Below, piece after piece: positions 104 to 12,704 of a stretch of 12,751 nt of DNA. The position numbers and the translations under genes are program-made. Every line of letters starts with the position of its first letter. The first letter of the stretch is position 1. The notes beneath the pieces were generated by a model, which was not told where the DNA came from, ran no database searches, and worked only from the letters and a program-made list of their open reading frames with translations. The DNA comes from Deltaproteobacteria bacterium (GTDB lineage Bacteria > Desulfobacterota > UBA8473): positions 1 to 12,751 of the forward strand of contig JAUXHQ010000018.1 of assembly GCA_030621455.1 (NCBI GenBank). Reading direction: 5' to 3'.

Positions 104-226
104 TTTTTCGAACTGTGCAGTTACACAAACCCAGTGTATTGAAGTCCCTATGATAGTTCAGTCAACAGGATTGTGTTAAACGCCGGTAAGCGGTAATCCT
201 GCCCAACTGCACTGGTCGAAATTTTT
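104..226 (+). repeat. MITE-like inverted-repeat element, uninterrupted copy
   Basis: A non-coding element of about 123 bp. Its left end TTTTTCGAACTGTGCAGTT (104-122) is matched on the other strand by the right end (about 205-226), with 15 of 17 positions of the shared TTTCGAnCnGTGCAGTT core identical. The same element recurs on the opposite strand at 12448-12704. Positions 105-186 align with 12702-12621 and 187-220 align with 12484-12451, without gaps: 97 of 116 identical by hand count. It encodes no protein and has no obvious target duplication. It behaves like a non-autonomous element or a dispersed intergenic palindrome family. Its age and mobility are unknown. Confidence 0.8.
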
Positions 227-7130: not shown

Positions 7131-7158
7131 AGGCATCTTTCATGCAACTTCAAAAGTA

Positions 7159-7400
7159 GTTTACACTTTTCCTAACTTGTGCGGTTACACAAAAAGTTAC
7201 AATTGCCTAAAGTTTGAAGTGCCTAAAGTTAATTTATTCTGCTTATTTTATAAACCAGATCTTGGTCAGAATCAAAATCAGCAGTGTTTTGGGGCGTATT
7301 TCTTAATTTTAGGCACTTTAGGCACTTCAAACTTTAGGCACTCATTATTTTTAGATGAAATTAGACCTAATTTTCTCGAAAGTTATAAGAAAGTGTAAAC
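7159..7400. repeat. 242-bp double inverted-repeat (MITE-like) element
   Basis: The outer ends are about 20-bp inverted repeats: GTTTACACTTTTCC from 7159, answered on the other strand by GTTTACACTTTCTTATAACTT from 7400. Inside is a perfect 24-bp inverted repeat, 7205-7228 against 7316-7339, built from GCCTAAAG and TTTAGGCACT units. The right side carries three TTTAGGCACT copies (7308-7317, 7317-7326, 7333-7342). TGTGCGGTTACACAAA at 7179-7194 resembles the core of the elements at 104-226 and 12448-12704. An open frame of 73 codons over this region is a by-product of the repeats. No transposase is encoded, so movement would need help in trans. Confidence 0.82.
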
Positions 7401-7410
7401 CGGCAAATGA

Positions 7411-12447: not shown

Positions 12448-12704
12448 TTTTTCGACCTGTGCGGTTGGGCTAGTTTACCGCTTGCCGGCTGCTTATTTCG
12501 TTTGCTTCTTATGAACTACACTTTGGCATAAGGCTGTATGTGAAAGGGGAAGACTAGTCTCGTATGAAATTTGTTATGTTGGCCAGGTTCTTACGTATAA
12601 CAAGCAAACAAAACAAGCAGCCGGCGCTTAACACAACCCTGTTGACAGAATCATCGGAGACACTTCAAGACGCTGGATTTGTGTAACTGCACAGGTCGAA
12701 AATT
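12448..12704 (-). repeat. MITE-like element, second copy, inverted and interrupted
   Basis: The same family as 104-226 but on the opposite strand. Its ends are TTTTTCGACCTGTGCGGTT (12448-12466) and, at the other side, TTTGTGTAACTGCACAGGTC (12679-12698). Read on the minus strand, 12702-12621 aligns with 105-186 and 12484-12451 aligns with 187-220, gapless, 97 of 116 identical by hand count. The 136 bases between these blocks are absent from the left copy. They consist of the inserted element at 12489-12620 plus one extra CCGG. Confidence 0.82.
12489..12620. mobile_element. 132-bp inverted-repeat element inserted in the MITE-like repeat
   Basis: The first 24 bases (12489-12512, beginning CTGCTT and ending CTTAT) match the complement of the last 24 (12597-12620) at 21 positions. 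It is flanked directly by CCGG at 12485-12488 and 12621-12624, whereas the uninterrupted family copy has a single CCGG (183-186) at the same place. This is what an insertion with a 4-bp target duplication looks like; because the site is a palindrome (GCCGGC), the exact border could shift by a base. No coding capacity, so non-autonomous. Confidence 0.78.

What the first reader, a model, noticed from the sequence alone, without database searches (positions are those of the whole stretch)
12448..12704. Nested elements: an interrupted repeat whose empty site is preserved in the same window
The repeat at 104-226 and the inverted repeat at 12448-12704 align gaplessly over 116 positions (82 + 34), except that the right copy holds 136 extra bases. 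Those are a 132-bp segment with 24-bp inverted ends (21/24 matching) plus one additional CCGG. The left copy therefore serves as the empty site, so insertion and target duplication can be read directly. This defines two separate small element families, one hopping into the other.
Basis: seen in the sequence. Interest (0 to 1): 0.72.

Follow-up and report, generated by a model that had tools for sequence, protein, structure and literature searches.

The report
Palindromic repeat that loses its core
A small transposon-like repeat in this bacterial genome seems to lose its hairpin centre again and again, so the shorter copy nearby is most likely a shrunken relative and not the site before an insertion; the hairpin centre itself also sits inside other repeat families.

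Summary
The alignment is real: 98 of 120 positions identical, 136 extra bases in the right copy. The reading [quoted passage not shown] is not supported. Both copies belong to one MITE-like family (ends CGACCTGTGCAGTT; 8-bp A/T-rich target duplication). Of 88 copies collected, 41 carry the core's 5' motif and 47 do not. Core module and outer arms co-diverged (Mantel r 0.57, 0 of 5000 permutations); short copies are scattered over arm ancestry; their junctions match 6-, 5- and 4-bp direct repeats of the long form; two orthologous sites are long in one genome and short in the other. Best explanation: recurrent loss of a central hairpin by slippage. CCGG is the edge of that hairpin; other families have TCGG/CCGA or TTGG/CCAA there. 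It sits inside repeat families with unrelated ends (X, with a 9-bp duplication; Y/Z; one W copy), in 8 genomes of this bacterial family and 0 of 387 others searched. No autonomous partner was found.

The parts
12453..12698 (+). Long-form element (246 bp), family C: ends CGACCTGTGCGGTT / AACTGCACAGGTCG
   Evidence: sequence; family alignment. Its flanks AACTTTTT / AAAATTGT match at only 5 of 8 (read by eye), so its own target duplication is decayed
12453..12466 (+). left terminal inverted repeat
12685..12698 (-). right terminal inverted repeat
12479..12483 (+). left CGCTT, one of two 5-bp direct repeats flanking the hairpin (loss between them gives class B short copies)
   Evidence: sequence; junctions
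12625..12629 (+). right CGCTT direct repeat
   Evidence: sequence; junctions
12484..12489 (+). left GCCGGC, 6-bp direct repeat at the base of the hairpin (loss gives class A short copies, such as the left window copy)
   Evidence: sequence; junctions
12620..12625 (+). right GCCGGC direct repeat
   Evidence: sequence; junctions
12487..12512 (+). left strand of the covarying stem of the central module
   Evidence: alignment and pair counts
12597..12622 (+). right strand of the stem
12509..12603 (+). core TTATGAACTACA ... TTACGTATAACAA, 95 nt here
   Evidence: length 93-96 in the copies (pattern allowed 62-132; one exception of 108, L031)
109..218 (-). Short-form element (110 bp), class A, read as a loss derivative of the same family; flanks AAAAATTT / AAAAATCT (7 of 8)
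183..186 (.). the single CCGG left at the junction of the short copy

Best explanation
The two window copies are a long and a short form of one MITE-like repeat family. The complete form has terminal inverted repeats, 8-bp A/T-rich target duplications and a central DNA hairpin module. Short forms arise again and again, also in place at a fixed insertion, when the hairpin is skipped by slippage between short direct repeats at its base (GCCGGC, CGCTT or GCTT). The hairpin module is not tied to these ends: it is shared with other repeat families of the same bacterial family. Shown: shared ends and target duplication, co-divergence of module and arms, scattered short forms, junctions at direct repeats, orthologous long/short pairs, module in other families. 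Inferred: slippage as the mechanism, long as the ancestral form, mobilisation in trans by a transposase that was not found.
For: 88 copies: 41 with the core's 5' motif, 47 without. Target duplication of exactly 8 bp: 32 of 87 exact, match 0.805 against 0.575 with shuffled partners, near background at 7 bp and only slightly above the highest of 200 shuffles at 9 bp (0.558 against 0.539). Module and arm distances among 22 long copies correlate, r 0.572, 0 of 5000 permutations. On the arm tree of 55 copies (22 long, 20 A, 11 B, 2 A') long/short needs 21 changes, against a mean of 17.5 (range 11-22) for 500 shuffled labels; B needs 11 changes (shuffles 6-11). Junctions fit GCCGGC, CGCTT and GCTT repeats of the long form. 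Orthologous sites: G000:C194 long versus class B with one change in G001, and G000:C265 long versus class A in G001, same orientation. The CCGG edge covaries in other families.
Against: The arm tree rests on about 100 columns with weak branches, and gene conversion between copies could also scatter the labels. Direct repeats around a missing block look the same whether it was inserted or lost; polarity rests on the two alternative junctions for one filled form, on class A' (which keeps bases of the module) and on co-divergence. X copies also have a short direct repeat (CCGGC, by eye), yet 17 of 17 collected keep the core (both ends were required, so truncated copies would be missed). One of the three state-differing orthologous sites (L002/L224) has the element inverted and is not clean. 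Some short copies have other junctions (L042, L048, L219, L205).
Confidence: 0.85

Rival explanations
1. One reading: the 132-bp segment is a separate small element that inserted into the outer repeat with a CCGG duplication; the left copy is the empty site.
For: The inner module also occurs in other repeat families; long and short forms coexist.
Against: One insertion point and orientation in the 25 long copies aligned, with co-diverged arms; two different empty junctions for one filled form; CCGG is a covarying stem edge; no complete solo copy seen among 74 classified modules.
Confidence: 0.05
2. One ancient insertion of the module, with a CGCTT (5-bp) or GCTT duplication, into a class B-like palindrome before the present copies spread, followed by recurrent loss that recreates the empty site.
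For: Class B (ACCGCTTAACGC) is what the pre-insertion site with that duplication would look like.
Against: In X, Y and Z the module edges are TTG...CAA-like and I saw no direct repeat of this kind beside them (by eye); class B copies are scattered, not basal.
Confidence: 0.25
3. The module is an RNA element acting near the 5' side of genes, captured by several MITE families and kept for its effect on the downstream gene.
For: Orientation: in G000 29 of 38 C copies with a scored downstream ORF point the same way as it (p 0.0017), in G001 17 of 22 (p 0.017), X 11 of 13 over all loci.
Against: Core-less copies show the same bias (G000 16 of 20, G001 13 of 17) and long C copies alone in G000 do not reach significance (13 of 18, p 0.096); X in G000 is 3 of 5. 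The stem covaries with almost no G-U intermediates (55 double changes against 2 one-sided), which points to DNA-level upkeep. No Rfam family reaches its threshold. ORFs came from a simple 100-aa caller, and orthologous sites were not removed between genomes.
Confidence: 0.2

Closest known systems
Correia element / NEMIS / CREE of Neisseria
   Same: MITE-like repeat with long (~155 bp) and short (~107 bp) classes that differ by one internal segment, some shorter forms (69-73 bp), a directional core, 71 of 113 in one strain 5' of genes (passages of PMC2229807 and PMC2649163).
   Different: Different ends and target duplication, a longer internal hairpin, repeated independent losses argued here, and a core shared with families that have other ends.
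ERIC (127 bp) and YPAL/RU-2 (168 bp) repeats
   Same: Small palindromic repeats between genes; ERIC orientation matters for its mRNA effect (passages of PMC2229807; abstract start of PMC2759123).
   Different: No direct sequence comparison was made; an optional hairpin core shared between families was not mentioned in the passages seen.
REP / REPIN palindromes
   Same: Short intergenic palindromes (abstract starts).
   Different: Here there are terminal inverted repeats and an 8- or 9-bp target duplication. That REPs lack these is recalled.

Membership tests
MITE (miniature inverted-repeat transposable element) | short, non-coding, many copies | tested here: met
   50-293 bp, 88 copies collected; 0 of 47 core copies scored lie inside an ORF of 100 aa or more
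MITE (miniature inverted-repeat transposable element) | terminal inverted repeats | tested here: met
   TTCGACCTGTGCAGTT with up to 2 mismatches: 76 forward and 84 reverse in G000 against 0 and 0 for the reversed control
MITE (miniature inverted-repeat transposable element) | target site duplication | tested here: met
   C family 8 bp, 32 of 87 exact; X family 9 bp, 5 of 17 exact, match 0.804 against 0.494 shuffled
MITE (miniature inverted-repeat transposable element) | autonomous partner with the same ends | tested here: inconclusive
   none recognised in 20 plus 15 stretches around ends; 0 of 10 ORFs beside single ends match a transposase family in Pfam; assemblies are incomplete
Nested (element-in-element) insertion | empty site plus a constant target duplication around the inner element | tested here: not met
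   two empty junctions for one filled form; CCGG is a stem edge
Nested (element-in-element) insertion | inner element found alone at other sites | tested here: not met
   71 of 74 classified modules have at least one recognised outer arm, the other 3 resemble X on one side. Module fragments without a recognised outer arm exist, e.g. G000:C112
Correia / NEMIS | long and short classes differing by an internal segment | tested here: met
   against passages
Correia / NEMIS | 5'-TA-3' at the termini (Table 1 of PMC2229807) and confinement to Neisseria (passage of PMC2649163) | tested here: not met
   ends CGACC...GGTCG and 8-bp duplication; related loci lie in MAGs named Deltaproteobacteria, Desulfobacterales or bacterium
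Known structured RNA (Rfam 15) | match at the curated threshold | tested here: not met
   only matches below threshold

The most novel reading that the evidence does not exclude
The ~94-nt core plus covarying stem is a unit in its own right: a DNA hairpin with two fixed motifs (GAACTACA and TTRCGTATAA) at a nearly fixed spacing, close to nine helical turns, recognised by some protein, and taken up by several MITE families with different ends and different target duplications (8 bp in C, 9 bp in X). It would be a module that lives inside transposable elements of different transposases.
Probability: 0.2. Interest if true: 0.6.

Novelty: new variant of a known kind. Interest (0 to 1): 0.4.

Why it matters
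It corrects a natural inference: a short copy beside a long copy of a palindromic repeat need not be the pre-insertion site. It gives a natural series of hairpin losses with known endpoints, including two clean orthologous pairs, and it exposes a structured module that keeps its length, its stem and two motifs while the sequence between them is poorly conserved between families that have different ends and different target duplications.

Full report
Observation. Left copy (104-226, reversed) and right copy (12448-12704) align gaplessly but for 136 extra bases in the right copy, 98 of 120 positions identical. The inner ends match at 21 of 24.

Family. The genome that holds the window (G000, 1.92 Mb, 292 contigs, 78% complete) has 25 full-length matches to the inner segment (40 of 48 candidates scored) and many short copies (40 of 76 candidates scored), so these are lower bounds. 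Pairing the ends CGACCTGTGCAGTT / AACTGCACAGGTCG over the loci fetched gave 88 elements, mainly from G000 and its congener G001, with some named MAG loci and two from G003: 41 with the core's 5' motif, 47 without (two rows overlap another row). The flanks carry a target duplication of exactly 8 bp, A-rich then T-rich: 32 of 87 exact, match 0.805 against 0.575 with shuffled partners. An element of 50 bp still has the duplication AATAATTT on both sides (L202).

Junctions of the short copies. Around the centre the long form reads TTTAC-CGCTT-G-CCGGCT...AGCCGG-CGCTT-AAC. Short copies fall mainly into class A (ACCGCTTGCCGGCGCTTAAC; the window's left copy is this with two changes), class B (ACCGCTTAACGC, with changes in some) and class A' (CCGGCTGCTTAAC or CCGGCTACTTAAC, which keeps module bases). 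These are the products expected from loss between GCCGGC (6 bp), CGCTT (5 bp) and GCTT (4 bp). Insertion would have to duplicate GCCGGC in one case and CGCTT in another and yet give the same filled form. A few copies have other internal losses (L042, L048, L205, L219).

Direction. Among 22 long copies, distances between modules follow distances between arms (Mantel r 0.572; 0 of 5000 permutations), so modules were largely inherited with their arms. On the arm tree of 55 copies the long/short label needs 21 changes (500 shuffles: mean 17.5, range 11-22), class B 11 (6-11) and class A 17 (12-20): state and ancestry look unrelated, as recurrent loss would give. The tree is weak and gene conversion is not excluded. 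In flank comparisons I read five sites as orthologous between genomes: two agreed in state (L046/L232 both short; L018/L166 both long, seen on one flank only) and three differed. Of these, L021/L276 (long versus class B with one change) and L114/L246 (long versus class A with a further insert) are clean and in the same orientation; in L002/L224 the element is inverted. Four further pairs in that list shared only part of a flank inside G001 and were not used as orthologous sites.

The module elsewhere. Searching 59 genomes (the own genome and relatives) with the right copy returned the two inner ends without the outer ends in other genera. There the module lies in repeats with other ends: X (GAGTGTAACCTTTTTTCGTT; 9-bp duplication, match 0.804 against 0.494 shuffled, maximum of 500 shuffles 0.601, 5 of 17 exact), Y and Z (AAACTCATTT-like ends, 3 copies each) and a single W copy. 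X also occurs in the window's own genome. A covariance model found the module in 8 of 395 genomes of the phylum, these being the 8 listed as the window's family (at most 8 candidates per genome were scored, with strict filters). A pattern scan of genome contigs gave 28 stretches, all in MAGs labelled Deltaproteobacteria, Desulfobacterales or bacterium (near relatives of the window's genome may be left out there); viral contigs gave none. Spacing: with a pattern that allowed 62-132 nt the copies were 93-96 nt long, with one of 108 (L031); the 28 stretches, where 25 gap lengths were allowed, span 94-97. Between families the two end motifs agree at 0.84-1.00 and the middle at 0.32-0.62. Because copies were found through these motifs, their conservation is partly by choice of sample.

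Stem. In 24 modules the stem pairs at 90.9% of cells, 16 of 27 pairs show changes on both sides and 55 cells are double changes against 13.6 in shuffles; only 2 cells are one-sided G-U changes, and about 57 of 624 cells are unpaired, among them a C-C mismatch in most rows at one position. Covariation with hardly any wobble points to upkeep as DNA. One copy (C21, L028) has a right arm that is nearly the exact complement of its left arm, 56 of 60, median of 39 copies 0.52, as template switching within a hairpin would leave. The outer edge of the stem is CCGG in C and X, TCGG/CCGA in Y and most Z, TTGG/CCAA in W and one Z: CCGG is not a target duplication.

Orientation. With a simple 100-aa ORF caller, C copies point the same way as the next ORF in 29 of 38 scored cases in G000 (51 copies; p 0.0017) and 17 of 22 in G001 (25 copies); X 11 of 13 over all loci, but 3 of 5 in G000. 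The first count (C 22 to 5, X 13 to 0) pooled genomes and used looser borders; the genome-by-genome figures are the ones to use. Long C copies alone in G000 are 13 to 5 (p 0.096).

Autonomous partner. Twenty stretches around ends without a listed partner and 15 around X and C ends were looked at; several proved to have a diverged partner nearby. Ten ORFs beside single ends gave 9 with ordinary Pfam families and 1 with none, no transposase.

Comparison. The Correia element is the nearest analogue in behaviour (length classes by an internal segment; passages), not a relative by any test here. That replicative polymerases slip at a hairpin in vitro is stated in the abstract start of PMC4134008; I read no more of it.

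Noticed in passing
window, about 7157-7402: Another palindromic intergenic repeat, ends GTTTACACTTT.../...AAAGTGTAAAC, with an internal inverted repeat around GCCTAAAGTTTGAAGTGCC; a related piece lies at G000:C53 (L262).
   Followed up: no
L246 (G001:C143), also L205 and L242: An insert of about 180 bp with ends GGGGACGGGGACGAAATAACTTCC inside a class A short copy; pieces of a similar GGGACG(G/A)GGACGAAATAA motif join the stem in L205 and L242.
   Followed up: partly
L028 (G000:C21:26-233): A copy whose right half is a near-perfect complement of its left half, unlike the other 38 long copies compared; looks like template switching in the hairpin.
   Followed up: yes
C and X copies in G000 and G001: Copies point preferentially in the direction of the next ORF (29 of 38 scored C copies in G000), long and short alike.
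   Followed up: partly
L218 (G003:C82:16161-16410): C-family ends around a different interior with its own inverted repeat (ATTCTTGATTCATTTTG...).
   Followed up: no
right arm of C elements: A stretch of about 45 bp in the right arm is absent in L017, L031 and perhaps C116 (L072, contig end), so the right arm has its own optional block.
   Followed up: no
G000:C112 (L074), C183:8812 (L073), C41 (L069): Truncated module pieces without a recognised C end; C183:8812 resembles the Y family, C41 joins module sequence to a different end.
   Followed up: no
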